Shown here piece after piece: positions 29,415-56,556 of a stretch of DNA of 64,000 nt (its first letter is position 1; every line of letters starts with the position of its first letter). A model generated the notes under the pieces. That model was not told the origin of the DNA and ran no database searches. It saw only the letters and a list, made by a program, of their open reading frames with translations. A program made the position numbers and the translations under genes. Origin of the DNA: a virus; the IMG/VR virus record IMGVR_UViG_3300035670_000034, positions 1-64,000 of that record; one strand, given 5' to 3'.

Positions 29415-32400
29415 ATGCAGGACATTCAATTTAAAGCCGCTAGCGGTCAGTTCAACATTGACGAAGCACAGGGAATCGTTGAGTGCTTTGTGGCGGGCAT
29501 AGGCAACAAGGACTCTGTTGGCGACATTGTTGTTTCCGGCGCTTTTGCCAAGAGCCTTATGAGGCGAAAGCCAAGAGTTGTTTGGGGCCACAATTGGAAT
29601 GACCCAATTGGCAAAGTTTTGGAAATCTACGAAGTTCCGGCAAATGACCCAAGACTTCCTGCAAAAATGAAAGCAGCCGGAATTGGCGGTCTGTACGCAA
29701 AAGTTCAGTTTAACTTGAATTCCGAAAAGGGCAAAGAAGCGTTTACGAATGTTGCCTTTTTTGGCGAAGAGCAAGAGTGGTCAATTGGATACAAAACACT
29801 CGATGCAATTTACGACAACTCCAAACAAGCCAATATTTTGCGAGAAGTTGAACTCTACGAGTTGAGCCCTGTGTTGCACGGAGCGAATCAATTGACTGGA
29901 ACTATTTCTGTTAAGAGCGAAGAAAAGGGACACGGCATGTCACCCATGGGGGTGATTATGCTCGAAGAAAAGCCCAAGCAACCGCAAGACCCATTTTTGC
30001 AAGGTGTTGCGCAACCACTTGAGGGCGACAGGCTTGTGGCGCTGCAGAACGAACTTGCATCGCGAACTGGCGGCCCTGTCAAGGTAATGAAGGCGACTGA
30101 AAGTTCTGTTACGTTCCTCAAGCCTGGCAAGGGAATGTTCAGGCTTGGATATTATTTTGACGGCGAACAATACATGTTTGGCAAACCAGAAAAAATTGGA
30201 ATGCCGATGATGATTAACAAGCCGATGCCACCAATGCAGCGCCCTGGCGCTGGCCCCAAACCAATGCCGAGAATTCCCAATTTCCCCGGCGTCACCCAAA
30301 AGCCGTATTCCGCTCAAGAACCGGCAGTGCCAGTTAAGTATGGCGATTCTGATATTCAAAGTGGATTGTTCGATTCATCAAAATCAGAAAATGATGAGTT
30401 TGTTGGAAAACTTAAAGGAATAATTTCCTCTCTTCAGGAAATTGTTGGAGACGACACCGAAGAGAAAAGTGCCTGGGTTATCCCGTGCAGCATAGAGAAT
30501 GCATTTGAAACTAAGCAAGCCCTAGACCCAGTTTTTGATTATCACAGAATAGAAACGTTCGTTACCGAGGAAGGCATAGTTATTGCATCCCCGCTTGACT
30601 ATGAGGCCTATGAGGCGGTGGAAACTGCCACCAAGGGACTTGCGGGGAGAATTGGTCGCGGGCTCACTCCCGGTGGTGGGGGAAAAGTTAGGCGCGGCAG
30701 GGCCGCGCTAGCCAGAATAGAGGGGGTTCTTGACCCAAGAAAAAGACGTGACGTTGACGGCGACGGAATGATTTTTGATGGCACTTGGATGGAGCAGCCA
30801 GACCCAACGAGATTTGCTGAGCCTGAGCGTGGCGCACTTTCTCCAAGAAGAGGTCGCGGACTTGCCTCCAGCACAGATGATGAGCGACTATACATTCCCA
30901 CAGAAAAACCAGAAACACCCAAAAAAGAAAAAAGAAAAGCAACAGACGAACAAAAGAAGAATAAAAGACGTGCTGGCGGTGGAACGCCGTGGTACATAAT
31001 TGAAAAACAAAAAAACAATAGAGATATTGTTCCTTTCATTATCCCGCGATACTTTAAGCCTCGCCTTGACAGAATGATTGACGACTTCCTGGACACAGAC
31101 GAAGGCAAAGCATTGCCAGAAGACCACATATTGCGAAGAGTTGGAAAAGCAATAAAGACAGCAAAGCGTTATCAGGAACTACAGCCGGAAATTAACGAAT
31201 TTGGTCAGGAAACTGGCTTTACCAGACCAAAGCAAACTTCCGATTTCCTGCCCGATATTGATGAAAAAATGCTAAAAGAACTCCAAGATGTCTGGCCGCA
31301 AATTAGTGATGGACTTGCAAAAACAGGTGGCCATAGGACCAACGAAAAAGGCAATCAAGAAAAGGGTCAAACTGCGTTTGATGCACTTAGTTCACTTATC
31401 AAAAATGGTTCTTGGTCTCGTGTTAATAAACAAACTTCTGGATATATGTCAGAAGAACAGGGTAGGCAAGCAGACGAAGCGTTTGATGATTCTTCGATTC
31501 TTGCCGGAGTAGTTCGCAGGGGGGAAAGAGTTAGAAAGGCTCGCAACGAGGCCGACAAGAGGGGGCAACGATTCCAGCGCGGCGTTGATACGCGAGCCGG
31601 ACAAAGAAGAGCAGATACTGGAAAGAAACGCGTAATTAAAAAAGTTTGGCCTGGGGATTTCCAACACGCGCCATTTGAGTTTCCAACAATAAAGGGCGAA
31701 CAAACAATCTCTTATGAAAAAGTAATTGATGGCAAAAAAGTAGATTTGTTGAAACCCTACATCGATGCTGGGCTTTTCCCAGAAAATTGGAAAACAATGA
31801 GCACTGAAGAGAAGTTTGCTTGGTTTAATGAAAATCAAAAAAAACTTGAAAGCATAAAAGAAACTAGAACAAGTCCACGGTGGAGAAATACAATTGCAAA
31901 ATTAAACGACTTTCTGCTGGAAGAAACCATGAAGGAAGACGAAAAAAGGGAGCGCGCGCTCAGACTTACGGAACTAAGAGATAAGCCAAAGCCCGCTGCC
32001 GAGGCCCCCAAAGCACCCGCTCCGAAGGCACCAGAAAAGCCAAAACCGCAAAAGCCTGCATCAGCGCCAACCGACGGGCCGGACAGGGTGACTTCCCAAA
32101 CCAAGAAAAAGATAAGAGCATGGGCAGACACAATCGCAGAGGCTGTCAACTCATCGGGCGTTGATGGTGACTTTGCTGATACCGCATACGACGGAGCGGA
32201 ACGGGTTTTTTCAATTGCGTTTCCCGATGATTCAACGCCACTAACAAGAGAACTTGTTGACGATGCCCAGGAAGAACTTGACAATGTTATTGCAGAACTC
32301 GGCAGCATCGCAAAAGAAAGAAAACTCACGAAACGTGAGAAGTCAACTCTTCAATTCATGTTCCAGGCAAGAAAATTCCTGGACGAACCATTTGGTGACA

Positions 32401-33089
32401 GAGAAAATACAGAAGCAGAACTAAGGGGCGACGAGGCTGGCGAAGCCCTTGCTAGGCGTGGCAGACAAGTTTCAAGACTTGGACTTGACGATGACGATGA
32501 AGAGGTTCTTGGTGGCGCAGACCTAGGAGATATATACGACAACGACGAAAGAAACCCAGGGGATTGGGACGACAATGACGGTGGCGGACTATCCAGCAGT
32601 ACTGTAAACAACATTGTTGGTCTGCGTTCATCTACAAGAAAAGCGCGTTCGTTCCAATCAGCAAACCAAAGAAAACGCGAAGGCCGTTCCGGGCTTGCGT
32701 CGTCCTCAAAGAGTCCAAGAACAGAAATAACCAAAGAATCAACTTGGTGGAAGAGAGTCGATGAATCTCTTCCAAAAGAAATACGAAGTGCTGACTCAGA
32801 AGCAATTAAGCAAGGCTTGACAATACTTCAACAAAAAATATCGAAATATGAAGCAGGCTCGTTTAGGCCAAATTCCAAGAGAACAAATGTCGGTTCAATA
32901 AAAATTACTGCCGACGAAGCCGACAAAATCCTTGATGCGGTCATGTCGGTAATCGACAGACAAAAAACTGCCGGAAGGGACGGCGGCGTTGGAAGTAGAG
33001 GAGAAATATTTGCAGAACTACTTGAGGCAGTTGCATCTTCCGCAATGTCAACGTTTGTTGATAAAACATCAAAACCAGCAGATGATTGA
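29415..33089 (+). CDS. HK97-type prohead protease fused to long modular extension
   Basis: A 1224-residue protein. Residues 1-170 are a U35-type prohead protease: V-V-S-G-A-F-A-K-S-L, V-V-W-G-H-N-W (catalytic His 59), E-Q-E-W-S-I-G-Y (Ser 123), and V-E-L-Y-E-L-S-P-V-L-H-G-A-N. Then come a Pro-rich linker, a mixed domain to about 400, a Gly/Arg-rich segment (G-R-I-G-R-G-L-T-P-G) and an EF-hand-like D-V-D-G-D-G-M-I-F-D-G-T (446-457). G-L-A-S-S-T occurs at 482, with related copies near 1058 (G-L-S-S-S-T) and 1093 (G-L-A-S-S-S). The remainder is charged and helical. Normal proteases of this type are about 200 residues, so the 1000-residue tail is unusual. The ATG at 29415 has AAAGGA five bases upstream. 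Confidence 0.85.
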   Translation: MQDIQFKAASGQFNIDEAQGIVECFVAGIGNKDSVGDIVVSGAFAKSLMRRKPRVVWGHNWNDPIGKVLEIYEVPANDPRLPAKMKAAGIGGLYAKVQFNLNSEKGKEAFTNVAFFGEEQEWSIGYKTLDAIYDNSKQANILREVELYELSPVLHGANQLTGTISVKSEEKGHGMSPMGVIMLEEKPKQPQDPFLQGVAQPLEGDRLVALQNELASRTGGPVKVMKATESSVTFLKPGKGMFRLGYYFDGEQYMFGKPEKIGMPMMINKPMPPMQRPGAGPKPMPRIPNFPGVTQKPYSAQEPAVPVKYGDSDIQSGLFDSSKSENDEFVGKLKGIISSLQEIVGDDTEEKSAWVIPCSIENAFETKQALDPVFDYHRIETFVTEEGIVIASPLDYEAYEAVETATKGLAGRIGRGLTPGGGGKVRRGRAALARIEGVLDPRKRRDVDGDGMIFDGTWMEQPDPTRFAEPERGALSPRRGRGLASSTDDERLYIPTEKPETPKKEKRKATDEQKKNKRRAGGGTPWYIIEKQKNNRDIVPFIIPRYFKPRLDRMIDDFLDTDEGKALPEDHILRRVGKAIKTAKRYQELQPEINEFGQETGFTRPKQTSDFLPDIDEKMLKELQDVWPQISDGLAKTGGHRTNEKGNQEKGQTAFDALSSLIKNGSWSRVNKQTSGYMSEEQGRQADEAFDDSSILAGVVRRGERVRKARNEADKRGQRFQRGVDTRAGQRRADTGKKRVIKKVWPGDFQHAPFEFPTIKGEQTISYEKVIDGKKVDLLKPYIDAGLFPENWKTMSTEEKFAWFNENQKKLESIKETRTSPRWRNTIAKLNDFLLEETMKEDEKRERALRLTELRDKPKPAAEAPKAPAPKAPEKPKPQKPASAPTDGPDRVTSQTKKKIRAWADTIAEAVNSSGVDGDFADTAYDGAERVFSIAFPDDSTPLTRELVDDAQEELDNVIAELGSIAKERKLTKREKSTLQFMFQARKFLDEPFGDRENTEAELRGDEAGEALARRGRQVSRLGLDDDDEEVLGGADLGDIYDNDERNPGDWDDNDGGGLSSSTVNNIVGLRSSTRKARSFQSANQRKREGRSGLASSSKSPRTEITKESTWWKRVDESLPKEIRSADSEAIKQGLTILQQKISKYEAGSFRPNSKRTNVGSIKITADEADKILDAVMSVIDRQKTAGRDGGVGSRGEIFAELLEAVASSAMSTFVDKTSKPADD

Positions 33090-33226: not shown

Positions 33227-34582
33227 ATGGAATACGACAAGAACGCAGTTGTCAAGTTGGATACCGATGGTTCGGTGTTGAAGTGTGCGAAGGGCGCCGA
33301 TGCTGGCTCCTGTGGATACACACCAGGCGCAAAGGTGTGCGCAAAGTGTGGCGCTATTCCGCTTCAAATGAAGGCGATGCCCATGTCGGATGAAGAGGAA
33401 ATGGACGACCAGGAAGAAATGGTTGATGCAGAGGAAGAAACCGAAAAGGGCTGGAGCAAAAAGAAGAAGCCCATGAAAATGAAGGCTGCTCCAGATGACA
33501 TGGACGACGAAGATGAAGACGAGGAAGACGTTGACATGGAGGCAGGCGACTCCGAAGAGGAAGACTCGGATGAGGAAGACGTTGACGTGGAGGCAGACGA
33601 CGAAGAGGAAGACGAAGAGGCTGACTCCGAAATGGAGCAAATGAAGTCAAGACGCCTTCGCACCATGGGCTACAAGAGCGCCGATGTTGGCGCAAGAGGC
33701 TATCTTTGCGCAATTGACCGCAAGGTTTACCCAGGTGGACAGCCAGTATGTGATGACTGTGTTGGCGGATGCATGGCAGAAAAGGGAATGCCAGGACTGC
33801 TTCATGTAGAAGGACTTGCAGAAGACATGTTTGACGGAAAGGTTCTTGACTCTGGCTATTCGGCGGAGGCAGACATGTTCGTTGTTGATGTCGAGGCCAA
33901 GGATGGTCGACCGGTGGAAGTCTTCATTGACGGCACTTCGGCAGAAGTTCTCGGTTGGCACAAACTTGATAACAATGCTTTTGAGCAGAAATCACTTGTT
34001 GATGAAATGATGCTCATCGACTTTAACGATGCTGCAGACATTGCAACCAAGTCAATCCAGGGCCATGTTGTGGCAGTGGAGCCAGATGTCTTCGAGGGAT
34101 ACGACGCATACGCGGTTGAAATTGACGGCATCGACGGCAAGTCGTATGACGTCTTTGTTTCGCTTGACGGCGAAGTTCTTGGCTACGACAAGTACGAAGA
34201 GGAAGATGCGCAGGCGATTGAAGCCGAGGCTGCAGAAATTGCCCTCAAGCGCGCATTTACGCCAGAGCAGAGAGAAAGAATGGCCGAGGAGGGAACAGCA
34301 CTCCCAGATGGCTCATTCCCAATCGGAAACAAGGAAGACCTTGGAAACGCGATTCAGGCATTTGGCCGAGCAAAGGATAAGTCGGCAGCAAAGCGTCACA
34401 TCATGAAGCGCGCAAAGGCACTTGGTGCTGAGGCGATGATTCCGGCAAATTGGATTGCTGGGAATAAGTCAGCCGATGACACTGGGTCAACAACCCTTGA
34501 TGACAACTTTATGTCTCAGTTGCTGGAGTTCGAACTGCTCAGCACAGAGGTTGAAGAACAAAATAAAACACCAGAGTCGTGA
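33227..34582 (+). CDS. Capsid-region protein with Cys clusters, acidic tract, PepSY-like pair and DUF6582-like end
   Basis: A 451-residue protein in clear segments. Cys 20, 29, 38 and 41 form a possible zinc site. Residues 54-136 are extremely acidic, broken by a Lys-rich patch at 78-86. A second Cys cluster lies at 161, 175, 178 and 182. Two similar domains (about 196-243 and 264-320) each end in a G-x-x-x-E-V-L-G pattern and read like PepSY domains, known as protease propeptides or inhibitors. Residues 342-409 (R-A-F-T-P-E-Q-R, L-P-D-G-S-F-P-I, H-I-M-K-R-A-K-A-L-G) match the DUF6582 type found near phage capsid genes. A scaffold or protease-regulating role is possible. It has its own promoter and a strong ribosome site. 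Confidence 0.7.
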   Translation: MEYDKNAVVKLDTDGSVLKCAKGADAGSCGYTPGAKVCAKCGAIPLQMKAMPMSDEEEMDDQEEMVDAEEETEKGWSKKKKPMKMKAAPDDMDDEDEDEEDVDMEAGDSEEEDSDEEDVDVEADDEEEDEEADSEMEQMKSRRLRTMGYKSADVGARGYLCAIDRKVYPGGQPVCDDCVGGCMAEKGMPGLLHVEGLAEDMFDGKVLDSGYSAEADMFVVDVEAKDGRPVEVFIDGTSAEVLGWHKLDNNAFEQKSLVDEMMLIDFNDAADIATKSIQGHVVAVEPDVFEGYDAYAVEIDGIDGKSYDVFVSLDGEVLGYDKYEEEDAQAIEAEAAEIALKRAFTPEQRERMAEEGTALPDGSFPIGNKEDLGNAIQAFGRAKDKSAAKRHIMKRAKALGAEAMIPANWIAGNKSADDTGSTTLDDNFMSQLLEFELLSTEVEEQNKTPES

Positions 34583-34608
34583 CCGACTACTAGAAAAAGG
34601 TGCCTGCC

Positions 34609-37600
34609 ATGCAGGAACATAGGCTAGTTGTATCCCGAACTATCACGAGTGGCAGATTTTCTCCAGTAATAGAAAAATCAATTCGTGAACGCATTGAGGA
34701 CTTTGCTGAAGTTCGCCAACTATTAAGTCTTTATCCATTTTCCGCTGACTATGCAGTGAAGGCGGCAATGGGCGGCTCAAAGAGAACCGGCGGAGCGAGA
34801 AACCCGGCAGCAGATAATAAGGCAAAGCGTCAGAAAGAACTTAATTTTCGTCGACTGGGGACTTATTGTTTTGACCCAAAAGCAACAAGGAAGCCGAATC
34901 AATACTTTGAAACAAAACCGCGTTTCAATCTTGATGGGCAAATGGGTGATGTCGCGAATGTTGGGTGGCTAGATGTACCAAAAGCAGTTGAGCCAGAAAA
35001 TCTAGTCAAAAGAGCAAATGAGTTTTACGCATCTCAGGCGGGCAAACCAAAAATAATTGCGCGTGCAGCAAAAATAAACAAACGAACAGGACAACTTGAA
35101 GCAAAAGCCCTTGGGCAGCCAATTGGCCGGGTAGCAGGAAACATCGGTCAGGCCGCAGCAAGGGCAATAGGAATTGTCCTGGACCCAAGCGGAAGAATGC
35201 GTTGCCCGCCTGGTGTGCCTGCCGCAAATCAATTTACTGATGAAATTGGAAGTAACTGCTTTGACTTTACGCCCGCAATTGGTAGGGCAGTTATGAATAT
35301 TGTTCGCAGAGCAACCCAATCAATAATTGACGATGTCAACAAGATTGACGGTGCTTTGCCGATAGTCAGAAATGAAGATGGAAGCATTTCTGAAGTTTCA
35401 GCAGAAACTGCATCATTGATTCGCGGTGGACTACGAAGTTCAACTGGAACCATAAGGGGACCACGCGGAGAATTGCTTGGACCCGACGGCATGCCCATAA
35501 GAAGACCAGAGCCGCCTGCACTCCCAGACGTCACCCCAGAGTTTGATAGAGATGTTGCCGATATAGCATCACGCTCTAGAGCAATACCACCAGAAGAGTA
35601 TGAAGAAGTTTTTGAAGGAATGATTAGGCGCGCCTATCCGGAACTTTCACTTAGCGAAGTTAAAAGATTGGCAAAACAGGCTGTCCGAAGACAAAGAATG
35701 AAGGACAAGCAAAGAGCAGATGTAAAAGAGGTTCTTGATTTTGCCAGCAGTCTCGGCATAGAGATAGACCCAACCGACCCCAACTCGGTTCAAGATGGGC
35801 TAGCAAAAGTTCTCAACGCCCTAAAACAACCAGAAAATGGCGCCTGGGACATCAATCTCAAGTCATATTTTGGAAATAGATTTGGGTCGGGCGACATGTC
35901 GGTGGCCATGCTTGAACACAGGGCAAGACAACTTGAATCGATAATTAACTATGCAATTACAAATCCAGCAGCATTTGGTATGGATTCAGAGGAATTTAAA
36001 TCACTTATTGTCTCAAGGTTCGGTGGAAGTCCACAACGCCTTCATGACGGAATGCTTGAAGTTCTCACGGGAATAAAAAGCATTGAAGAAGTCTTTGGCT
36101 CGGAACCAAGAGCAAGAAGTCTTTTTGCTTCAATTGTTAAAAAGCATAATCAAATGCGAATGCAAGAGGCCGGATTGCTGATTGGTTTAATAAATCAACG
36201 TCGTCGAAATCCGGAACTCACAAAAGACATGCACACACTAAGCATTCTTGACCCGTTTGATAGACGTGGGGAAATGAGCGACGCAATAACTTATGTGGAC
36301 CCTAGAAAAAATGGATACGGGATGCATTTAAACCCGCTTGCAACGGTGATGCAAAGTGATGAGTTCATGGGCGGACCTACACCTGACTACATTCTTTTTG
36401 AACCAGATGGCGCAGCGGGAACGGAAGTGGCAAAACTTGCCGCAATTACGTCCTCCCTTGATGCACATGGAGCGGCAAGAGCAAAACAAGCATATTTGTC
36501 GGAATTGCAAAATATTGATGTGTACCAAGAGTCAGTGGGAAGGGGTGACGGCTGGCAACAGTTTGACTTATTGCAAAACCTCGGTCAGGCCGGCTCAGGA
36601 ATGTACATTATGGCCCACGAAATGGTGCATGGAAGACAGTTGATGCTAATTCAAAAGTATCTAAAGTCCATACCTGGCCTTACGGATTCAATGACAAACG
36701 AAGACATAATTCAGTTGTCCCAAGACCTGCTTGCTGGGGACCGTAAATTTCCAAGCGTTTTTGGTCATGATTGGGATTACTCATCAATAATCTCAAATAA
36801 AGATTGGCTTCCATCGGCAGTAGAAAACATGCCAGAAATTATTCAAATATTACTCCGGAAAAATGCCGGCGGTAAGTATGCAATGAATCAATATTGGCAC
36901 GCAGCGTTTACTGACCCATTTTTGAGCGCGAAATCGACAGACGAACTATATCTACATTTGAATAATTTACGTCAAAAAATGGAGACGATGGACCCAAACT
37001 CAACCCAATTCGAACAAGCATTATTGGTTTTCAATGAAATGGCGCAAATATACAATTCTGGGGACATGGGAAAGATGCAAGCGGCGTTTGCATCACATAA
37101 ACAAAAATCAGCGCTTGTGTTTGCCGAAATGCAAGCAGAATTAATGGCTGGCATTGAGTCTGGGTTGATTGAAATGACGCCTGAAATAGAAGCATTTTTG
37201 GGTCCGCTCGCACCAGGTAGGGATATCCCATCAGATTTTGGAATAGTGAATCCAGACGCAAAACCAGTTGTGGCAGTAACAAGGGAAAGCATAAAAGAGG
37301 GAATCAAGAACACAATAAGTATCCGCAAAAACATTGAAAGAGGAAAACGCAAACTTCGCGAAAGAATGGCGATGAATGATTTGCCGGACTCAATCCCAGG
37401 ACTTGGAAGTGATACCACTGGTGATTCGCGCAGAATATTCGACGCACTATCTGGAGTTGCGTCAAGAACGGATATGTCAAAGCGTGGATTCTTGGTGAGA
37501 GAAGCCGTTCTCGATGCAGCCACAGAGCAACAAAAACAAATTTTGTCAGGAAACTGGCGTGATGCTTCCTGGAACACGTCAGACCCGGTCGACTGGGGCA

Positions 37601-43719: not shown

Positions 43720-43721
43720 CC

Positions 43722-44177
43722 ATGAAATCAATACTTGTCGGGAAAAAAGGAAACAACAGGGTTTATTTTGTGGTCGACTCGAATAGCCAGGAATCAGATG
43801 GAATTGTTAAAAATATTGTTGGAGACACAGAAGTTGTTAATTTTTGGCAATATGTTGACGACAATCCATCTATGCACAAAATTAAGGGAACGGTCTTCCA
43901 CGACTACCTTTGGGACGGACATCAATCCAAAACGGGAGTTCACTGGTATTCTGTTTTTGTAAGCAAATCTTTGCCGATAAGTGATAATTTGCTGGATGGC
44001 GCCATAGTCAACAAAGATATTTTGCGCCGTATACCAAAGTCACTTGATTACGAAAATAGGGCAATGGATTTCAAACTGGCCAAAAACACTGGGAATTGGT
44101 CGCAGAAAATGATTTCGCATTGGATAGATAACCCAAATAGGCAATTTAAAACCAAAAAACGAAAGAAAAAGAAGTGA
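43722..44177 (+). CDS. Small basic-tailed protein
   Basis: A 151-residue protein (MKSILVGKKGNNRVYFVV start) of mixed alpha/beta character ending in a Lys/Arg-rich tail (KKRKKKK). Aromatic clusters occur in the middle (FHDYLWDGHQ, VHWYSVFVSK). The ATG follows the stop of the giant gene by two bases; a GTG six bases earlier is also in frame. I do not recognise the family. It lies inside the large modular operon and may be a chaperone or structural partner of its neighbours. Its basic tail could contact DNA. Confidence 0.65.
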   Translation: MKSILVGKKGNNRVYFVVDSNSQESDGIVKNIVGDTEVVNFWQYVDDNPSMHKIKGTVFHDYLWDGHQSKTGVHWYSVFVSKSLPISDNLLDGAIVNKDILRRIPKSLDYENRAMDFKLAKNTGNWSQKMISHWIDNPNRQFKTKKRKKKK

Positions 44178-44833: not shown

Positions 44834-44834
44834 T

Positions 44835-46901: not shown

Positions 46902-49900
46902 AAAAGTACGCATTACTCAAAAACATTTCAAAAGGAATTAACTTTGGAATTGTTGTCAAGTCAGAAAACGGATACTCCTTTTACGGATGGAGCGACAAGG
47001 GCATTGAATGGTCAAAATGGGCCAATGAGAATAACGGCGGGCTAAAAGACCTTCCAGTGGGAATTTCTGTCAGCGAATTTAAGTCTCTCTCCGAAGAGAT
47101 GATGAATAAAATTGTCATCAATACAAAAGACGCTGTTGCTGCTGGGTCCGGATTGCTCAAATCGGAATCAAGCATGGTGCTGGTGGAATCAGAAAAGTTT
47201 CCAAATGCTTCCAAATTCCCTTCCGTAACAAACAGCCGTATTTTGATTGGGTCAACCAACAAGAAAACTTCTGTTGCCTATAAGGCAAAACATTTTAAGC
47301 ACTCTATTGCGCGAAGCGAGATTGCTTTTAAGGTAAGAAATAATGAACTTGCATTCAACCCCAAAACAAAACAATTTAACGCAAAACCAAACAGGGCTTC
47401 GCAATTTGCAGAGAGAAACAATATCCAGTCAAAGATGTCGCGTGGAGCAGAAAGAAAGTTTGGCGAAAGAGTTGTCAAATCTATTAATGACCAAGTATTT
47501 GAAACCGAAAAGGTCAAACTTACCAAGCGCGACAGCGTTGGCGTAAACACAAAAGAGGTAGTTGAGTTCTTTGCAAAGGGAAGACTTGGCTATACAATTG
47601 GTCGCGCCGGCAGCGCTGCTGTTCGCGGAATTACCCCAAACAGACGCACTCGCGGTGCCGCTTCGCGGGTAATTGCTGGAGTTCTTGACCCAAGAAAGAG
47701 AAGAGACGTCGACGGCGATGGAATGATTTTTGACGGCACCTGGCGAGAAATGCCAGACCCAACCAGATTTGTGAATAAGCCCGAAAACTTCAGTGGGGGA
47801 TTGGCTCGCCGCAACAGGGAGGGGGCTGGGAGGGTTGTTCCGCTTCCGAGTCGAAGTAACGACGATAGGGGCGGGTATGCGCTATTGAGCAGCACTCAAG
47901 GTGAGCGACAGCGCCCGAGAAATATTACCCAAACTGCAGCGGCTGGAGGTGGAGACGGTCCAAACCCGCCACGTGTCGCAACTGCACGACTGATGAGAAT
48001 GGACCCGAAGAATTCTCGCCTTGCAAGAGAAATGACATATGACCCACAAAATGGGGATTTTACCGTCAGGTACAGAGATGGTCGTGTCGAAAAATTTACT
48101 GATGTTCCATACGAAAGAGTCAGAAAGGCTGGTTTTGATGACAAGCCAGACCCGTTAATCACCGCGCTAGAAAACGAGCAGAACAAGAAGCCAAGTCGCC
48201 CGATGGGATTAATGTCATCGACTGACAAAACACCTTCATCGAAGAAACCAAAAGTTGTTAACAGAACTTCATTTGTTGAACCGAATAAGGGAAGTAAATC
48301 TTCCACAAAAATGACGATGGAACGAGCCGCCGACATTCTCGGTGATATGACCAAAAATTCTGAAGACCGTGGTTATGGTGCATGGGATGAGGCAATAAGC
48401 AAAGTCTTTGGCACAGACAGAACGGATATGACCGGATTCCCGAGGCTCATATCAAATATTGGCGCTCGAATTGACCAGGCCATAAATTCTCCGTCAATGT
48501 CCGATGAAAAAAATAAATCAAAACTGAAGACGTGGACAAAAATTGTAAACGACGTTGCCGATTCACTCTCTCCAAACGAGGGCAGATTCAATGCAGATGC
48601 CATAAGCGAATTAGCAAAGTTCATTGATGATGTTTGGCTAAACAGAGACGCCGACGCAAGCGCCGTTATCAGGGCGTTTGACCCAGATGACAAAAATTCC
48701 AATTTTGCAACCGCGATTGAAGCGGTTATGGCGTATTCGCTGGGCAAATTGAAGGACGCAAAATCTCGTGGCCTATACATGGACGGCAGAGGGAGAAAAT
48801 CAAGAACCGGAAGCGTTATAGACGAAATTCTTGATTCTGCTGGTGGGGCGAACGAGCCAGAACTTGCACGAGGCCTCAACAAGGTACGACGGGGAATGAC
48901 GCTAAATTCAGAAGAGCGTTCCGGCCTTCTCGAATCATTGGACAATATTAAGAAAAATAATGAAGATTTTGATGGCGATTCACGTCTTGATGACCTTATC
49001 GACGAAGTTAACTCCCTCGGCGATGGAGGCGACATCATAGATGATTTGCTTACTGCTGCAGATGGTGCCAACGAGCGAGAACTGGAAAAGAATCTTAAGA
49101 AAGTTAGAGATAACAGAAAACTAACCCCGCAAGAACGAGCAAACTTGCTCGAAGATTTAAGAAACACCCAGAAGAATAATGATGATTTCAGCGGCGACAA
49201 GAGACTCGAAAAACTAATTAACGATGTTAAAAAGGGTGATGACCGTGGCGGCCTCGCGTCTCGGACTTCTGGGCCGGATGATGACGACTCGCGAGAAGAC
49301 GCATACATTGAATCAAGAAGAGAAAAAGAACGTGAACAATTGCAGGGTGTCGCAGATGATATGGCAGAAGATGCGTACATTGAGCAACAGAGAGAGTCTC
49401 GTGGTCTGTCATCATCCACTTCTTCCCTAAAGCCAAAGCCATCAAATCCACAAAGAAACAGCGATGGGAGTTTTGTTAACGTCTTCGATGATTTTGAAAC
49501 GGATGACCTTTTTGGCCGTCTAGGTCACCACAACAAGATAATTAAGCAATTACAAAAGTGGCTGGATGGTGACGGGCCTTTCCCAAAGTCGCTGAACGAT
49601 TGGTACCGCGACCGTGACCGCGCTGAAAAATTTCTTCGCGAATCTAGACAAGAACGCCTTAAGGTAATCAAAGCCTTAAAGGACAGGGGTTACGAAAGTC
49701 CAAATGAGGCAAGGAAAGAATACAATCGTTCCAAGAAAAAGCCAAAAAGTGATTCCCAAAAGCCGCTTACCTATTTGCCATTAGATGCTTTGCCAGATGT
49801 TTTGAGACGGCTCAAGGACAATTTGGATAAAGAAGACAAACCCTCTTACAGGCCACAAAGAGAAGACAAACCCTCTTATAAGCCACTAATTAACTCAGAC

Positions 49901-52900
49901 CTACTCAGTTCTTGGGATGATTTTGCTGAGCAAAGGCCTGCGATGGTCTACAGAGGGAGCGGGCAAAAGCGCCCATCACGTGGACTTGCATCTTCCACCG
50001 ACACAAATAAGCGTGGCTCGATAGTCAATGAACTAATCGATTCAGCGCGCGGCGCAAATGAACCAGATTTTGAAGCCAATCTAAAGAAATTCCGCTCTGG
50101 CGCTGACTTAACCGATGATGAGCGTTCAAGTTTGTTGGAGTCACTCAACGATGTTAAAAATAATAATGCCGACTTTAGCGATGATGCGCGTCTTGACGAT
50201 TTGATTGAGCAGGTTGGCGGAAAGAGCGATACCGAAGACGCCATAAACGCAATCAATAAAATTAGGCGTGGACAAATGCCAACACCAGAAGAAAGAAAGA
50301 GGGCTCTTGCATCTCTTAAATTGATGCGTTCGCCGGATAAGAATCTTAGCGAGGATGAGCGCGACACCATCATGGCGTTGGAAAAGCAAATTTCAGGTCT
50401 CAAGTCGAGCACCGAAGATGATGGTGCAGATATCGACGATGCAATTAAAGCAATCGAAAAAGTCAATCGCGGTGAAAGACTTACCCCTGACGAAAAACAA
50501 AAGGCTCTTAATGCCCTAAAACTTGCCAGGACGCCAGACAGGGGGCTCAGTGAAGACGAGAGAATAGGCGTAATGGATATGGAGAAGCGGATTTCACAAT
50601 CCGCTTTGGCATCCAGAACAACAGGCCGCTCAACAAGAAGGCCAGTTGAACAACCGCTGTCAACAAGAATGGCTATGGTCACAACAGAAAGAGCGAGCAG
50701 GCCAAGGGGACTTGCATCAACAACTGGCACTGACGCTCGCACTGAAGCACCAAAGAAAGATGCCAAACCAAAGAGGCGCAGTCGTCTCATTATTGATATG
50801 GTCGACAATTTTGGAAAAACCAAAAAAGATGGTGACGGAGAACTTTGGGAGTCGATGTCCGACGAACAAAAGTCTCAAGCAAAAGAAGCGATTGCAGCAC
50901 AAAGGAAAGTCATCGAGGACAGACTCAAGACAAAATCATTTAAGGGTTGGTGGCAAAAAGCCGAGCAAGGAAGCGACAAAGAGACACTGCGCGCAGTAAA
51001 GAAGCGTGCCAAGGGTCAAGCCGGCGGCACATACGAGGGAAGACCCAAGGACGACCCACTAAACAAAAATGACGTTCAAGACCTTCTTGTGGTTCTTGAT
51101 GATGCCGTTGCTAAAGGTCGAATTAAGAAATACAAACTCAATGATGACGGAACAGTCAAAACTGATAAAGATGGAAGGCCGATAATGACGGAGGCCTATT
51201 CGCGTGCAGCGAGAGACCTTGACGACCTTCTCACAATTCTGAACATGGAAGAAGAGGGTGATTTTTCGGCGCTTGAACATTTCCATACCGGAACAAGGGC
51301 CGCAATTCACAAAAAAGTTGGAACCACCGCAACCGGAAAATTCAAAATGGGCGATTCCTCAATCGCTGGCCAGGCGGGCGGCCTATCAAAGGCGCAAAGC
51401 GTCGAGGAACTCAGCGATGTCGACCTTGGCAAAGCCAAAAAACTCTCCATTGGCCGCAGACTGCTGCGCGTCAATGAAAGGCGTGCCGCACGAGCACGAC
51501 AGCGAGCACTGAGAAGACAGGGTGCTTTCAGAAAGGGAAGAATCCTTACATCGGGAGACCCCGAACTTGAACTAAAGAGAGCACGCCTGCGTGCTCGCGC
51601 CCTGAAGAGAACAATGGTTTCGAAATTCAGAAAGTCAAGAGATGCCGACGGACTCTCAAGGGACATGAGCAAGGCAAAGGCTGAGGTTGGAGCGGTAACA
51701 ATTGATAACGATGGCAAAGTCACAATAACACCACGCTATGTATCGATGCTTTCCAAACTTGGCGGAGAGTACAACAGAGCAAAGAATGTTGGCGATGACG
51801 ACGCAAAGAGAAAAGTGTTTGACCAATTGCTTGCAGACCTGTGGGTGAACAGTGGAATGTCTGGAGAACCAACACTAATCACCGAAGATGAAGCGCGAAA
51901 ACTGGTTGCCGCTGGCTGGCAGCCAGTGATTCGTGGAACTGGTAGTGAAGAGGTAAACAGCGAGTCTTATGTTGAACAGTTTTTGACGAACAAGGAAGAA
52001 CTGCGATTCATTCCGGGCCAAGGCATGAGGGCATACGGCGTTGGCGAATATTTTGCATTCCCGGGAAGCAACTGGAGCGGATATAGAGGAACCGGGGACC
52101 AAAGACACACCATTCTTGCCCTCATTCCACCAAGTGCCGACATTGTCAGTGTTGGCGAACTTACCCGCGAACGAGACAAGATGCGCGATTTGACTTCCCG
52201 TGCGGTTGATGCGACCAAAGCACTCGGTGGGCGTGATGCCGCTGCTGCACTCTCACCTGGAGAACTGGCTGAGGCTTACAGAAAGGCGTTGCCAAATCTT
52301 GATGCAGAAACATCGAGAAGTGGTCAGATTGTGAGCCAACTCGTGCAAAGACTTGAAGAACTTGACAAGATGCCAGCATCTGATGAGGCAACAAAAGAGA
52401 AGAAAGAAATTTTGGGAGCATTTGACTACCTGCAAAGTTTCACAAGACAAAAGGATGTCGGCTACTTTGCGCCACTTATCGGTGTTGACGGAATTGACAC
52501 GAACGATAACACTGGAACAGGTTCGCCATTCTTGTTGCACAACAGAGCAAATGTTGCCGCTGTGCTCAGGCCGCTAACCAGCGACGAGGCAGAGGGCCTC
52601 GCAAAACAGGAGAATGGTGGCTCCGTTGGAAACATTTGGAGAAACTGGAAGACAAGACCAGATAGAAGCCGCGAGGGTGCAGCAATTGAGGACCGAAGAA
52701 GAGTTCTTGTTGGCGGCAAGAGAAGACGCCTGTCGACAAGACGTCCTGGCTCAGATGGCGGTGACTCTGGCTCATCGGCACCCGATTCCCCAGCACCAAC
52801 ACCACAAAACGTAACGCCAGTTTCAAAGAGCGCAGTAAACACTGACTCATGGAAGCAAGGAAGACCCCAGTCAGTTGGCTCAAATCCAGCAACTCTTCTT

Positions 52901-53518
52901 ACTGACCCAAATGGAACCACCTATTACACAAAACTAAAGAAGGCTGGCGAAACAACGCAACAGGCACGCGAGAGAATGGAGACCGAGGTTCTTGCCGGAA
53001 AACTGTACGAACTTGCCGGAGTTCCGGTTGCTGACCTTCAAATGGGAACAAACAATGGCGACCCTGTCATGTTGTCCAGAATGATTCAATCAAGAATGCC
53101 ACAAGGCGCTGGTGACAATAACGCCGCTAGAGACGGTTTTGTTGTTGACGCTTGGTTGGCCAACTGGGACGCCCCACTAAATGACAACATTAAAATCGAC
53201 AACAACGGCAGGGCGGTCAGACTTGACGTTGGCGGCTCCCTCGACTACAGGGCGCAAGGCGCCAAAAAGGGGAGCGGAGGAAGCGTTTCTTTTGGAAATA
53301 GTGTAGGCGAAATGACATCTCTACAAAAAAGAGGAAATATTGACTTTACCGCAATGGATGCAAATGAACTAAAGAAGCAGGCTCAAAAATTAGGAACAGT
53401 AACAGATGACCAAATTAGAAAAACTGTATCTGCGATAGTTTCTGACCCTGCACGTGCAAAAGTTCTTGCTGATACACTCATTGCTCGCCGCGACGATATT
53501 GTGAAACGATATGGGTGA
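46898..53518 (+). CDS. Giant modular protein (EF-hand-like, KTSC-like, helical repeats, ART-like, kinase-like)
   Basis: 2206 residues. Order: N-terminal domain; Gly/Arg-rich segment; EF-hand-like D-V-D-G-D-G (270-281) within L-D-P-R-K-R-R; L-L-S-S-T (329); KTSC-like domain (about 367-425); G-L-M-S-S-T (437); helical region with five related repeats (about 639-1235); G-L-A-S-x-T-type peptides at 785, 836, 1029, 1167, 1236 and 1271; long Arg/Lys-rich region (about 1500-1600); ADP-ribosyltransferase-like domain (V-I-R-G-T-G, R1679; G-V-G-E-Y-F-A-F); acidic/Arg linker; C-terminal HipA/PI3K-like kinase with Y-Y-T-K-L-K, M-E-T-E-V-L, W-D-A-P-L-N-D-N (D2091, N2097) and D-V-G-G (D2110). Coupled to its neighbours by short overlaps. 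Internal virion or delivered effector protein by inference. Confidence 0.8.
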   Translation: MKKYALLKNISKGINFGIVVKSENGYSFYGWSDKGIEWSKWANENNGGLKDLPVGISVSEFKSLSEEMMNKIVINTKDAVAAGSGLLKSESSMVLVESEKFPNASKFPSVTNSRILIGSTNKKTSVAYKAKHFKHSIARSEIAFKVRNNELAFNPKTKQFNAKPNRASQFAERNNIQSKMSRGAERKFGERVVKSINDQVFETEKVKLTKRDSVGVNTKEVVEFFAKGRLGYTIGRAGSAAVRGITPNRRTRGAASRVIAGVLDPRKRRDVDGDGMIFDGTWREMPDPTRFVNKPENFSGGLARRNREGAGRVVPLPSRSNDDRGGYALLSSTQGERQRPRNITQTAAAGGGDGPNPPRVATARLMRMDPKNSRLAREMTYDPQNGDFTVRYRDGRVEKFTDVPYERVRKAGFDDKPDPLITALENEQNKKPSRPMGLMSSTDKTPSSKKPKVVNRTSFVEPNKGSKSSTKMTMERAADILGDMTKNSEDRGYGAWDEAISKVFGTDRTDMTGFPRLISNIGARIDQAINSPSMSDEKNKSKLKTWTKIVNDVADSLSPNEGRFNADAISELAKFIDDVWLNRDADASAVIRAFDPDDKNSNFATAIEAVMAYSLGKLKDAKSRGLYMDGRGRKSRTGSVIDEILDSAGGANEPELARGLNKVRRGMTLNSEERSGLLESLDNIKKNNEDFDGDSRLDDLIDEVNSLGDGGDIIDDLLTAADGANERELEKNLKKVRDNRKLTPQERANLLEDLRNTQKNNDDFSGDKRLEKLINDVKKGDDRGGLASRTSGPDDDDSREDAYIESRREKEREQLQGVADDMAEDAYIEQQRESRGLSSSTSSLKPKPSNPQRNSDGSFVNVFDDFETDDLFGRLGHHNKIIKQLQKWLDGDGPFPKSLNDWYRDRDRAEKFLRESRQERLKVIKALKDRGYESPNEARKEYNRSKKKPKSDSQKPLTYLPLDALPDVLRRLKDNLDKEDKPSYRPQREDKPSYKPLINSDLLSSWDDFAEQRPAMVYRGSGQKRPSRGLASSTDTNKRGSIVNELIDSARGANEPDFEANLKKFRSGADLTDDERSSLLESLNDVKNNNADFSDDARLDDLIEQVGGKSDTEDAINAINKIRRGQMPTPEERKRALASLKLMRSPDKNLSEDERDTIMALEKQISGLKSSTEDDGADIDDAIKAIEKVNRGERLTPDEKQKALNALKLARTPDRGLSEDERIGVMDMEKRISQSALASRTTGRSTRRPVEQPLSTRMAMVTTERASRPRGLASTTGTDARTEAPKKDAKPKRRSRLIIDMVDNFGKTKKDGDGELWESMSDEQKSQAKEAIAAQRKVIEDRLKTKSFKGWWQKAEQGSDKETLRAVKKRAKGQAGGTYEGRPKDDPLNKNDVQDLLVVLDDAVAKGRIKKYKLNDDGTVKTDKDGRPIMTEAYSRAARDLDDLLTILNMEEEGDFSALEHFHTGTRAAIHKKVGTTATGKFKMGDSSIAGQAGGLSKAQSVEELSDVDLGKAKKLSIGRRLLRVNERRAARARQRALRRQGAFRKGRILTSGDPELELKRARLRARALKRTMVSKFRKSRDADGLSRDMSKAKAEVGAVTIDNDGKVTITPRYVSMLSKLGGEYNRAKNVGDDDAKRKVFDQLLADLWVNSGMSGEPTLITEDEARKLVAAGWQPVIRGTGSEEVNSESYVEQFLTNKEELRFIPGQGMRAYGVGEYFAFPGSNWSGYRGTGDQRHTILALIPPSADIVSVGELTRERDKMRDLTSRAVDATKALGGRDAAAALSPGELAEAYRKALPNLDAETSRSGQIVSQLVQRLEELDKMPASDEATKEKKEILGAFDYLQSFTRQKDVGYFAPLIGVDGIDTNDNTGTGSPFLLHNRANVAAVLRPLTSDEAEGLAKQENGGSVGNIWRNWKTRPDRSREGAAIEDRRRVLVGGKRRRLSTRRPGSDGGDSGSSAPDSPAPTPQNVTPVSKSAVNTDSWKQGRPQSVGSNPATLLTDPNGTTYYTKLKKAGETTQQARERMETEVLAGKLYELAGVPVADLQMGTNNGDPVMLSRMIQSRMPQGAGDNNAARDGFVVDAWLANWDAPLNDNIKIDNNGRAVRLDVGGSLDYRAQGAKKGSGGSVSFGNSVGEMTSLQKRGNIDFTAMDANELKKQAQKLGTVTDDQIRKTVSAIVSDPARAKVLADTLIARRDDIVKRYG
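48812..50600 (+). repeat. Five related helical repeats in 2206-residue protein
   Basis: Units begin near 48812, 49031, 50015, 50228 and 50429. The first three share I-x-x-x-L-x-x-A-x-G-A-N-E and L-L-E-S/D-L; the last two are nearly identical in plan (A-I-x-A-I-x-K, L-x-x-x-E-x-x-x-A-L, S-E-D-E-R). Each unit is about 55-70 residues and helical. They are related at protein level but the DNA has diverged. G-L-A-S-x-T-type peptides stand between or after units. Confidence 0.65.
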
Positions 53519-53525
53519 GGAAAAT

Positions 53526-53921: not shown

Positions 53922-53928
53922 GTTGCCC

Positions 53929-56556
53929 ATGGCGGCAGAAGAAGATACGAACTCAAAGGTTTTTGCACTTCGTGCTGCTCAATGGATTGGGTGTTCTGGG
54001 GCACACAAAAAAGACGGCAAATGGATGCCGTGCGAAACACACGAAGAACTTGAAAGAATTTCCAATGAAGCGGAACCCCAAAAAAAGACAGGTTTTGAAG
54101 CCCTCACCGAAAATTATACAAAGCGCAAGGCAAAGGGTAAAAAGAAAAGAAATCGCGGTTGGGAAAAACTAAAAGAAAGAAAACCGCTTGGTTTTGCGAC
54201 GCTTGAGGGTGGGGGAATAGTTTCTGCCCCAATCGTTGCCTTTCCAAACGTAACCCTTGGCAACAAGTCCTATATTCCCGGAGTATCTCCAAGAGATAAC
54301 GACCCAGACGTATTTACTGACATTGAGTCGGCGCGCAAACGCTCAAGAATGCTTGGCTGCATCGGCGTACGAAGAATGCCATCGTCAACTGGTCGAACTA
54401 TATGGATGCCATGCACAAACAATTCTGATTATTCACGTCTTGCCGGAACAACGTTTCTTGGAAGAAGAAATCAACGAGAAGCACAACGGAGAATGATTAG
54501 AACAATATTGCGTCGCGAAATGGCAAATAACAACAGACGGAACAAAATTAGAAAGAAATCATTATTTGATGAATTAAACGAAACAAAAGGAATTGGTAGG
54601 GCGATAGGTAGAGCCGCTTCTGGAAACTCATTGAGCAGAAGATTAAGGCGCTCAGTTGAAAAAATTGAAGGAGTTTTAAATCCACTCGAACGCCGAGATA
54701 TGGATGGGGATGGCTTTATTTTTGACGGCACATGGCGGGAAATGAGGGCGCCAAGATTGGCCAGTTCAACCGGGGAGCGACCAGAAATGGAAAAGCCTTC
54801 ATGGGTTTCACCAACCGACAATAGATGGATGAAACCTGCAAAAATCGGAAAAGGTGGACCATTGAAAGCAAGTGAACTGCTTAACTACGACAGATTGAGA
54901 ATTAGAAAAAACAGAGACGAACAGGCTCGAGTCCTCGGAGTGACCAGAGACGTCATAGACGCAATGCACGAGCCGGATGCATCAATAGATGCGTTCGATG
55001 CCGACAGGTTGACAATGTCCGCACTTGGCCTTCACCCAGCGTTGATTTGGGGAGAATCATGGCTTGATGCCGACAAACAACCAAAACCCGAAAAACCTAT
55101 TCGAATAGCAAAAAGAACTGGAAAGCCAGACCAACGCTCTGTTGTGAACGCAAAACGCCGCGACCTAAACGATAGGGACAGGCAAGTTCTTGAGATGCGA
55201 AGAAATGGTAAAACGCAACAAGAGATAGCGGACGAAATTGGAGTAAGCAAGGAGCGGGCAAGACAAATACTTAATGCCGCCATAAAAAGAAACGAAGATG
55301 AAATCGATAAAAATGATGGTCTTGCGTCATCGACTAGTTCCGACCCAATTAACAGACCTGGTCAAATCCCAAGGGATTCGCGCGGAAACATTCTAAAACA
55401 AGGTGATAGAAGAAAAGAAACTCTTGATAAAACCATTGAAAAACTCAAATCAATTGGATTTACCCAGGAAGAAATAAATTTGTTAATGACTGGAGATGCA
55501 GGAACTCCAGTTGACACGGCAACGAGAGATGTTGATATCGCTGCGGCAAAAAGAGGTTCTTTGGCCAGCAGGACAACTGGCCTTGCGTCAATGACATTGT
55601 CCGAAATGGCGCGCACAAACTCATCCGAATGGGCCCAAAATCAAAAAACCCACATAGTCGACTGGGCAAATTCGCGCCCATCATTCAACGTTCCATACTC
55701 TCTTGCTCAGCAATACAAGAGAGACGGTGACCTGAAAGATTCCGAATGGAAAAGATTGCTTAGGTTCTACACGCAGTATGGCCCGGAAAACAGGGGTTTG
55801 CGCTCAACAACTGAAGCAAATCCATTTGAAAATGTCGGCGCAAAAAGAATGGCAAAAATTATTCTTGACAGAGTAAGACAGGATAAGAGAAACAAAAAAC
55901 CAGGTGAAAGAACCCACTATCACGTTGTCGGACCGGGCGCTGTTGGCAAAACAACATTAAGAAAGTATCTAGTTGAACAAGGAATAATCCCCGGGGATAG
56001 CGAGTCAGCCCATGTTGACCCAGACTTCATAAAGCAGGGAATTGAGGGGTACAACGGCGGCGCTGGTTCAATGGCAGTTCATAGAGAATCCGCATATTCC
56101 GCCACAAGAACTGTTAACAATGCCGCAAATGAAGGGATGGACATCGTCACTGAAGGGACCGGATACAGATTATTTGAGTACAAAACAACAAGCGACCCCG
56201 CCTACAAAAAGGTCCTACATATCCCCTATCTCTCATTTGACGAAGCAGAAAAAAGACTCAGAAAACGGAATGCAGAAGGTAAGCGGCAACTTCCCGAAAG
56301 CCAAATAAGAATAAAGGGTCAGCAATTTTATGGATGGCTTGCCGACCACATCCAAAGGGGCGAAGTTCAAGATATGTATATCTGGGATATGGATGTACCC
56401 AAAGGTGCTGCGCCAAGAGTCATCGCAAAAATAGAAAATGGTGTGTTTAGAGCAATAGACGAGCCGGCATTTAAGAAGTGGTCAGAACAATCTGGCGGGC
56501 ACAGGGGTGGCGACGCAAACCTCGCATGGTTCAAGAGACGTTTTCCAGAAAAATAA
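53929..56556 (+). CDS. Modular protein with Cys modules, EF-hand-like element, HTH and zeta-toxin-like kinase
   Basis: 875 residues. Two copies of a G-C-x-G ... G-x-x-W-M-P-C module lie at 21-35 and about 142-162. A basic region leads to G-I-G-R-A-I-G-R and the EF-hand-like D-M-D-G-D-G-F-I-F-D-G-T (257-268). L-A-S-S-T (277), G-L-A-S-S-T (464) and a double copy (about 544-556) follow. Residues about 411-455 (L-N-D-R-D-R-Q-V-L-E-M-R, T-Q-Q-E-I-A-D-E-I-G-V-S, E-R-A-R-Q-I-L) are a sigma-region-4-like HTH. The C-terminus is a zeta-toxin-like P-loop kinase: G-P-G-A-V-G-K-T-T (668-676), H-V-D-P-D-F-I-K, H-R-E-S-A. Zeta toxins phosphorylate UDP-N-acetylglucosamine. The ATG at 53929 follows AGG by six bases. 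Confidence 0.75.
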   Translation: MAAEEDTNSKVFALRAAQWIGCSGAHKKDGKWMPCETHEELERISNEAEPQKKTGFEALTENYTKRKAKGKKKRNRGWEKLKERKPLGFATLEGGGIVSAPIVAFPNVTLGNKSYIPGVSPRDNDPDVFTDIESARKRSRMLGCIGVRRMPSSTGRTIWMPCTNNSDYSRLAGTTFLGRRNQREAQRRMIRTILRREMANNNRRNKIRKKSLFDELNETKGIGRAIGRAASGNSLSRRLRRSVEKIEGVLNPLERRDMDGDGFIFDGTWREMRAPRLASSTGERPEMEKPSWVSPTDNRWMKPAKIGKGGPLKASELLNYDRLRIRKNRDEQARVLGVTRDVIDAMHEPDASIDAFDADRLTMSALGLHPALIWGESWLDADKQPKPEKPIRIAKRTGKPDQRSVVNAKRRDLNDRDRQVLEMRRNGKTQQEIADEIGVSKERARQILNAAIKRNEDEIDKNDGLASSTSSDPINRPGQIPRDSRGNILKQGDRRKETLDKTIEKLKSIGFTQEEINLLMTGDAGTPVDTATRDVDIAAAKRGSLASRTTGLASMTLSEMARTNSSEWAQNQKTHIVDWANSRPSFNVPYSLAQQYKRDGDLKDSEWKRLLRFYTQYGPENRGLRSTTEANPFENVGAKRMAKIILDRVRQDKRNKKPGERTHYHVVGPGAVGKTTLRKYLVEQGIIPGDSESAHVDPDFIKQGIEGYNGGAGSMAVHRESAYSATRTVNNAANEGMDIVTEGTGYRLFEYKTTSDPAYKKVLHIPYLSFDEAEKRLRKRNAEGKRQLPESQIRIKGQQFYGWLADHIQRGEVQDMYIWDMDVPKGAAPRVIAKIENGVFRAIDEPAFKKWSEQSGGHRGGDANLAWFKRRFPEK

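What the first reader, a model, noticed from the sequence alone, without database searches (positions are those of the whole stretch)
30858..55815. A G-L-A-S-S-T peptide recurs about 20 times in four giant proteins
Seen directly: near-copies of [R/S/N]-G-L-A-S-[S/R]-T occur in the protease-fusion (30858, 32586, 32691), the 3036-residue protein (35428, 38395, 40036, 41557, 42445), the 2206-residue protein (47882, 48206, 49250, 49403, 49982, 50396, 50603, 50708) and the 875-residue protein (54757, 55318, 55558, 55795). Synonymous codons differ between copies, so conservation is at the protein level. They stand mostly between modules. Inference: a cleavage site for the neighbouring prohead protease, or a capsid-targeting tag, which would make these genes polyproteins of internal virion proteins. 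I know of no described system with this signature.
Basis: partly seen in the sequence, partly recalled or inferred. Interest (0 to 1): 0.88.

Follow-up and report, generated by a model that had tools for sequence, protein, structure and literature searches.

The report
Shared cut-site-like tag in phage polyproteins
An uncultured phage strings its probable injected helper proteins together as giant chains separated by one short repeated tag, relatives carry their own private version of that tag, and the tag resembles the place where a phage protease cuts the shell protein of phage HK97, so the chains are probably cut into separate working parts.

Summary
GLxSxT occurs 18 times in four giant proteins against 0.16 expected; about 24 copies in all, codons differing at random. 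The proteins lie between portal and major capsid protein (MCP); the first starts with an S78 prohead protease. A fifth giant protein outside the window and the tape-measure-like protein also carry it.

Related phages keep the sites but change the code: GLxSST, TLRSSG, GLASRR, GLSSG, GLAS, GMASR, R[LF]SSG. Each code is uniform across a phage's own giant proteins, and in several phages its tape-measure-like protein. Sites lie in linkers: 0 of 75 fall inside a recognised domain (16.8 expected). The pattern (R)-[GST]-[LM]-x-S fits the established S78 cut in HK97, K103|SLGSD, which aligns with a near-invariant [TAGS]-[LMI]-P-[ST] in this family's MCP.

Best explanation: processing sites dividing virion-borne polyvalent polyproteins, cut most likely by the S78 protease. 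Against: that protease domain barely changes when the code changes, the MCP site does not follow the code, and a tail protein carries it. No cleavage has been shown.

A separate once-per-protein DxDGDG element is a better tag candidate.

The parts
29412..33089 (+). Protein A, 1225 aa: S78 prohead protease (aa 21-165; His60 and Ser124 invariant) fused to polyvalent modules
   Evidence: Pfam PF04586 5.4e-10, phrog_80 7.5e-28; invariant columns
30717..30815 (+). A: IEGVLDP..RRDVDGDGMIFDGTW element (EF-hand-like loop pattern), once per protein, before the first site
30858..30875 (+). site A1 GLASST
   Evidence: low-pLDDT segment 457-525 of the A model
32586..32603 (+). site A2 GLSSST
32691..32708 (+). 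site A4 GLASSS
33227..34582 (+). 451-aa acidic, scaffold-like protein; aa 333-409 match the C-terminal part of the Gordonia phage GMA6 protease protein; no lineage-specific motif
34600..43719 (+). Protein B, 3039 aa: KTSC, RNase_T exonuclease, two HExxH zincin-like motifs
35161..35277 (+). B: IGIVLDPSGRMRCPPGVPAANQFTDEIGSNCFDF, in the place of the DGDG element
35428..35445 (+). site B1 GLRSST
37399..37416 (+). site B2 GLGSDT
37453..37470 (+). possible weak site GVASRT
   Evidence: below threshold
38395..38412 (+). site B3 GLASST, after the KTSC domain
40036..40053 (+). site B4 GLASST
41557..41574 (+). site B5 GLASST, before RNase_T
42445..42462 (+). site B6 GLASRT, between RNase_T and the C-terminal zincin-like module
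46898..53518 (+). Protein C, 2206 aa: DGDG element, KTSC-like stretch, ART-like region (by eye), C-terminal domain shared with other phages (kinase-like by eye)
47669..47767 (+). C: VIAGVLDPRKRRDVDGDGMIFDGTW element
47879..47896 (+). possible weak site ALLSST
48206..48223 (+). site C1 GLMSST, after the KTSC-like stretch
49250..49267 (+). site C2 GLASRT
49403..49420 (+). site C3 GLSSST
49982..49999 (+). site C4 GLASST
50396..50413 (+). site C5 GLKSST
50603..50620 (+). site C6 ALASRT
   Evidence: below threshold
50708..50725 (+). site C7 GLASTT
53923..56556 (+). Protein D, 877 aa: DUF3721, DGDG element, Sigma70_r4, zeta-toxin-like kinase
54661..54753 (+). D: IEGVLNPLERRDMDGDGFIFDGTW element
54754..54771 (+). 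site D1 RLASST; orthologous place reads GLASET, NLRSSG, SLRSSG, GLTSMR in relatives
   Evidence: pLDDT <50
55318..55335 (+). site D2 GLASST, just after Sigma70_r4
   Evidence: pLDDT <50
55558..55575 (+). site D3a SLASRT
   Evidence: pLDDT <50
55579..55596 (+). site D3b GLASMT
   Evidence: pLDDT <50
55795..55812 (+). site D4 GLRSTT, just before the zeta-like kinase
   Evidence: pLDDT <50
56704..58023 (+). Major capsid protein, HK97 fold, 439 aa from ATG 56704
   Evidence: PF05065 2.1e-45; PDB HK97 chains
57124..57141 (+). MCP TLPTGN (aa 141-146): aligns with the HK97 maturation junction K103|SLGSDA; small-[LMI]-P-[ST]-G in nearly all relatives
9239..14182 (-). Tape-measure-like protein, 1647 aa (named from gene order and size only)
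   Evidence: synteny with tail sheath 15477-16955(-); no informative family hit
12167..12184 (-). site GLASST (aa 667 of the tape-measure-like protein)
12035..12052 (-). site GLASAT (aa 711); relative G001 has LRSSG/LRSGG at aa 667/708 of its homologue

Best explanation
GLxSxT is a processing site in the flexible linkers of virion-borne polyvalent polyproteins, and of the tape-measure-like protein. One phage-specific protease recognises it and cuts the giants into separate effector modules (nuclease, kinase, sigma-like, KTSC, zincin and ART-like domains). The most likely protease is the S78 prohead protease at the N-terminus of protein A, which would also mature the MCP and release itself from its own polyprotein. 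The DxDGDG element near each N-terminus is the likelier packaging tag. Shown: the repeated motif, its linker position, a uniform code within each phage, its near-absence from other proteins, and its fit to the HK97 S78 junction. Inferred: that cutting happens, that S78 does it, when it happens, and that the modules are injected.
For: 18 copies vs 0.16 expected; random codons. Codes differ between phages and are uniform within one: a matrix from protein A of G000 finds 18 and 16 sites in the other giants of G000 and G003, and one from G001 finds 18 and 17 in G001 and G002, with 1 expected; D sites change code at orthologous places. 0 of 75 sites inside Pfam or homology-defined domains vs 16.8 expected, often 8-40 aa from a domain edge; all D sites and A1 in segments with pLDDT <50; hydrophilic flanks. 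S78 heads polyproteins of 1,100-4,740 aa in the motif-bearing relatives reached; two phages with short S78 genes (707, 701 aa) lack the motif, and motif-negative phages tend to have shorter proteins (p=0.007). HK97: 385-aa gp5 vs 282-aa mature chain places the cut at 103|104, K|SLGSD (N-terminal removal by gp4 in PMC9024508); Arg at -1 in 57/137 sites vs 7.7% background. The aligned MCP position is small-[LMI]-P-[ST] in nearly all relatives. Almost all copies are in giant proteins or the tape-measure-like protein.
Against: No cleavage data. The S78 domain is 85-90% identical between several phages with different codes; G000/G003 vs G001/G002 differ by a few mostly mild changes, and the seven positions separating the SSG phages probably reflect one clade. 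The MCP site does not follow the code. A tape-measure protein is not inside the prohead. The MCP alignment there is gappy. Several giants also hold zincin-like peptidase motifs. The Arg preference is absent at -1 in G014, and in the R[LF]SSG phages the Arg is position 1.
Confidence: 0.5

Rival explanations
1. The sites are processing sites, but the protease is another one: a zincin-like peptidase inside the giants, acting in the virion or after injection (as Iyer et al. 2017 propose for polyvalent proteins), or a host protease.
For: HExxH motifs occur in giants of all motif-bearing phages examined and MPTase-PolyVal in three of four scanned; the C-terminal zincin-like region of B diverges fast (27-28% identity to relatives) while S78 barely changes; motif-bearing proteins include the tape-measure-like protein, which is not in the prohead; PMC5512222.
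Against: The zincin-like motifs vary in type, place and number (G016 has one, G008 three), whereas S78 heads protein A in each motif-bearing phage where that gene was reached; the pattern matches the HK97 S78 junction.
Confidence: 0.2
2. An uncut docking motif: a short linear motif bound by a phage hub (scaffold, portal, capsid or tail chaperone) that organises, packages or unfolds ejected proteins; code differences reflect co-evolution with that partner.
For: A uniform code within a phage needs one common partner but not necessarily a protease; LPPs and the tape measure are the proteins expected to leave through the tail; the S78 domain hardly varies.
Against: Several copies per protein, up to 16, near domain edges, is more than a tag needs; sites lie downstream of a separate once-per-protein DxDGDG element where that is present; resemblance to a known cut site with Arg upstream.
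Confidence: 0.2
3. The repeat comes from DNA-level copying: linker cassettes spread by recombination or gene conversion, without a protein-level role.
For: Modules are shuffled between proteins (KTSC in B and C).
Against: All 23 copies differ in DNA and codon identity equals random expectation.
Confidence: 0.03
4. Ordinary flexible linkers rich in G, S and T, with no specific reader.
For: Sites are in hydrophilic, low-confidence segments; motif-negative G028 has Pro-rich repeats instead.
Against: Invariant L and S, phage-specific codes predictable across proteins and a 100-fold excess are not expected of plain linkers.
Confidence: 0.04

Closest known systems
Polyvalent proteins of phages and conjugative elements (Iyer et al. 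2017, PMC5512222)
   Same: Giant multi-domain proteins; Pfam MPTase-PolyVal and ArdcN in three relatives, with KTSC, exonuclease, helicase and zeta-like modules.
   Different: In the parts of that paper read here, processing is credited mainly to zincin domains, assemblin-like peptidases are always C-terminal, and no shared inter-domain motif is described; here S78 is N-terminal and one code is repeated across several proteins.
HK97 prohead protease gp4 and MCP gp5 maturation
   Same: A phage head maturation protease encoded next to an HK97-fold MCP; gp5 junction K103|SLGSD of the same pattern.
   Different: HK97 gp4 is a separate gene (about 225 codons) with no polyprotein; here S78 is fused to 1,100-4,740 aa. 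That gp4 is in the same Pfam family is from general knowledge, not tested here.
SPN3US gp245 and T4 gp21 processing of head and ejection proteins (PMC10052503)
   Same: A prohead protease cuts many packaged proteins at one motif, including multiple cuts in propeptides.
   Different: Those cuts remove N-terminal propeptides at a motif with Glu at P1 (P1 from memory); here sites separate functional modules and the code differs from phage to phage.
Phage P1 Dar antirestriction proteins (PMC9024508)
   Same: Head-borne antirestriction proteins made with a head protease; DarA is believed to be processed, and a capsid localisation signal was found in the 250-kDa DarB.
   Different: No multi-site polyprotein code reported in the passages read.

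Membership tests
Polyvalent proteins (LPPs) | Two or more functionally different domains in one polypeptide of a mobile element | tested here: met
   S78, KTSC, RNase_T, Sigma70_r4, zeta-like, UvrD, ArdcN, MPTase-PolyVal
Polyvalent proteins (LPPs) | Delivered with the DNA into the host | not testable with these tools
   Inferred from position between portal and MCP and from domain types only
S78/U35 prohead protease | PF04586 match with conserved His and Ser | tested here: met
   5.4e-10; phrog_80 7.5e-28; H60 and S124 invariant; their catalytic role is inferred from the family
S78/U35 prohead protease | Gene next to portal and in the head operon of an HK97-fold MCP | tested here: met
   Portal 27306-29327, MCP 56704-58023
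S78 cleavage sites | Sequence pattern of the established HK97 junction (basic | small-Leu-x-Ser) | tested here: met
   based on one experimentally established example
S78 cleavage sites | Peptide bond actually cut | not testable with these tools
   No proteomics available
S78 cleavage sites | Protease and site co-vary between phages | tested here: inconclusive
   Seven discriminating S78 positions in the SSG phages but only mild changes for GLxSST versus TLRSSG; MCP site constant
Viral polyprotein | Several mature products separated by repeats of one protease site | tested here: inconclusive
   Site layout met; mature products unknown

The most novel reading that the evidence does not exclude
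A clade of uncultured phages builds retro- or picornavirus-style virion polyproteins led by a prohead protease (up to 4,740 aa), cut by one private processing code per phage that also governs the tape-measure protein; codes diverge between close relatives and are changed at some 15-25 sites in concert.
Probability: 0.42. Interest if true: 0.92.

Novelty: new variant of a known kind. Interest (0 to 1): 0.84.

Why it matters
If the sites are cut, one short code would predict the mature products of dozens of giant unannotated phage proteins and explain how very large effector chains are packed and passed through a tail. The concerted change of some 15-25 sites between near relatives would be a natural experiment on how a protease and its whole substrate set co-evolve. 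It also gives a sequence-only way to split such giants into domains for structure prediction and defence/counter-defence screens.

Tried and rejected
The search for related loci with protein B gave no relatives. BLOSUM-seeded motif discovery was swamped by helical and Pro-rich seeds; gapped 4-mers worked. ELASRTGG at 30051 in A was rejected as a site: it lies in a confident helix (H206-219) and is much the same in phages with other codes. GLLSNT in the 688-aa protein 44835-46901 was rejected because it is the same in phages with other codes. MCP boundary peptides before [ST]IGEAF (SLRSET, LSSREIK, SLGSSNS) looked like matches in some clades but not in the window clade (ETRS), so they are not used as main evidence. 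Annotated phages GMA6, Hanem and Phendrix and the metagenome-assembled DSL-LC01 lack an enriched motif of this kind in the regions examined. DNA-cassette copying was rejected by the codon test. PDB has no sequence relative of this S78 domain. AF2 models returned no coordinates, so docking of the site in the active site could not be read. The whole genome was not available as a file, so it was searched in pieces. The MCP column printed is wrong for some phages (a stale value was reprinted); the MCP comparison rests instead.

Full report
1. The observation. The window lies in a 136-kb uncultured virus record of a myophage-type genome: tail sheath and terminase on the minus strand, portal, S78 protease and HK97-fold MCP on the plus strand. 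Its nearest cultured relatives by MCP and protease are Gordonia and Brevibacterium phages. Four large proteins A-D lie between portal and MCP. GL.S.T occurs 18 times in their 7,347 residues (0.16 expected) and is the most enriched of all gapped 4-mers; nothing like it is enriched in the other window proteins. A self-trained matrix keeps 20 sites. Copies share no codon pattern beyond chance (0.229 vs 0.235).

2. Beyond the window. A fifth giant (3,365 aa, genome 80806-90901) carries a similar DGDGDG element near its N-terminus and has seven GLxSxT sites, with one looser GLRSLS before that element. The tape-measure-like protein has two. In relatives G020, G010 and G017 nearly all R[FLMY]SSG copies in about 26,000-50,000 scanned residues lie in giant proteins or the tape-measure-like protein; G010 and G017 each have one further copy in a small ORF.

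3. Relatives. A DNA pattern for DxDGDGxIFDGT, a D-protein scan and an MCP-profile scan gave loci from dozens of contigs; the MCP scan does not depend on the motif. Regions from protease to MCP were fetched for 14 phages. The most enriched gapped 4-mer per phage was GL.S.T (G000 18, G003 16), LRSS/LRS.G (G001 19, G002 15), LSSG/GL.SG (G008 14, G019 14), GLAS (G014 15), RGM.S (G016 15), R.SSG (G017 15, G010 17, G020 23, G022 19) and LSSG (G025 8), each with 0.09-0.29 expected; GL.S.R is enriched in G004-G006, at the top of the list in G005 and G006. G013 and G028 have short protease genes (707, 701 aa) and no such motif. The regular expressions used for counting in relatives were written after seeing these k-mers; the k-mer ranking itself was unbiased. 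Many contigs are fragments and related, so counts are not independent events.

4. One code per phage. A matrix trained only on protein A predicts sites in the other giants of the same or same-code phage (18, 16, 18, 17; 1 expected) and few elsewhere; the SSG phages cross-predict each other and GLAS partly predicts GLxSST. In the D alignment orthologous places switch spelling: RLASST / GLASET / NLRSSG / SLRSSG / GLTSMR and GLRSTT / GLRSST / RLRSSG / GLRSTS / GLRSRT. In the tape-measure-like protein most sites lie in the unconserved stretch between two conserved blocks, at aa 667/711 in the window (GLASST, GLASAT) and 667/708 in G001 (LRSSG, LRSGG).

5. Sites are linkers. None of 75 sites falls inside a Pfam or homology-defined domain, 16.8 expected; examples are 8-9 aa before ArdcN in three phages, on both sides of UvrD and RNase_T, and next to Sigma70_r4 and the zeta-like kinase. 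Flanks are hydrophilic. In the AF2 model of D all sites lie in segments below pLDDT 50 (39% of residues; shallow alignment of 12), and A1 does in A.

6. Why a protease site. HK97 gp5 has 385 residues and its mature chain 282, so the maturation cut lies at K103|S104, reading K|SLGSDADS; a paper states that gp4 removes about 104 N-terminal residues (PMC9024508). The pattern small-Leu-x-Ser with a basic residue in front is the motif: Arg precedes 57 of 137 sites against 7.7% background, and 184 of 218 sites have a basic residue within positions -3 to 0. In an MCP alignment the HK97 junction falls on TLPTGN in the window and [TAGS]-[LMI]-P-[ST]-G in nearly all relatives; this part of the alignment is gappy. 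S78 is fused to polyproteins of up to 4,740 aa in relatives. Motif-negative phages tend to have shorter proteins upstream of the MCP (p=0.007; groups assigned by hand).

7. What does not fit. The S78 domain is 85-90% identical between several phages with different codes. Seven positions separate the SSG phages from the rest, some close to the Ser124 strand, but these phages look like one clade. The MCP site does not follow the code. A tape-measure protein is not packaged with the prohead protease. So either S78 acts before packaging with few specificity-changing residues, or another protease or a docking partner reads the code. Zincin-like motifs occur in most sets.

8. A second shared element. 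A, C, D and the fifth giant carry one DxDGDGxI..DGT-type loop (EF-hand-like spacing, by eye) after an Arg-rich segment; in A, C and D, and wherever the pattern was found in relatives' giants, it lies before the first site; B has an LDP..CPPG..NQFTD variant. One copy per protein suits a packaging signal better than GLxSxT does.

9. Known systems. These are polyvalent proteins (PMC5512222); the parts read propose zincin autoprocessing and a C-terminal assemblin-like peptidase, and no linker code. Multi-substrate head processing is known for SPN3US and T4 and for P1 DarA. A module-separating code that differs between close phages was not found in the open-access library searched; subscription papers were not searched.

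10. Verdict. Observation confirmed; processing-site reading favoured (about 0.7 for any protease, 0.5 for S78); no cleavage shown.

Noticed in passing
G000 80806-90901 (L190:107-10201), outside the window: A fifth giant, 3,365 aa, with DGDGDG element, HEFGHH zincin-like motif and seven GLxSxT sites, more than 22 kb from the MCP.
   Followed up: partly
window 9239-14182 (-), sites at 12184 and 12052: The tape-measure-like protein carries the phage-specific site in the linker between conserved blocks; relatives carry their own code there.
   Followed up: yes
window 30717-30815, 47669-47767, 54661-54753: Shared Arg-rich + GVLDP + DxDGDGxIFDGT element, once each in A, C and D; possible Ca-binding packaging domain.
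   Followed up: partly
window 33227-34582: Scaffold-like protein whose C-terminal part is joined to the protease in Gordonia phage GMA6; here the two are separate genes with polyvalent modules added to the protease.
   Followed up: partly
window 52800-53515 (C aa 1970-2206): C-terminal domain (kinase-like by eye) shared with proteins of Pseudomonas, Aeromonas, Gordonia and other phages, some annotated ADP-ribosyltransferase.
   Followed up: no
L029, ORF of 906 aa on the minus strand: A 906-aa DGDG protein begins with a domain matching the stand-alone 153-aa protein at window 43716-44177.
   Followed up: no
L064 upstream ORF, 3,223 aa: A different repeated peptide, PTASM, in a giant protein of a relative; possibly another code.
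   Followed up: partly
G013 (L148+L065), G028 (L152+L105): Motif-negative relatives with Pro-rich repeats (TPAPKP in L065, PExTP in G028).
   Followed up: partly
window 20126-21274 (-): Phosphoadenosine phosphosulfate reductase gene (phrog_2302, 5.2e-79), an auxiliary metabolic gene.
   Followed up: no
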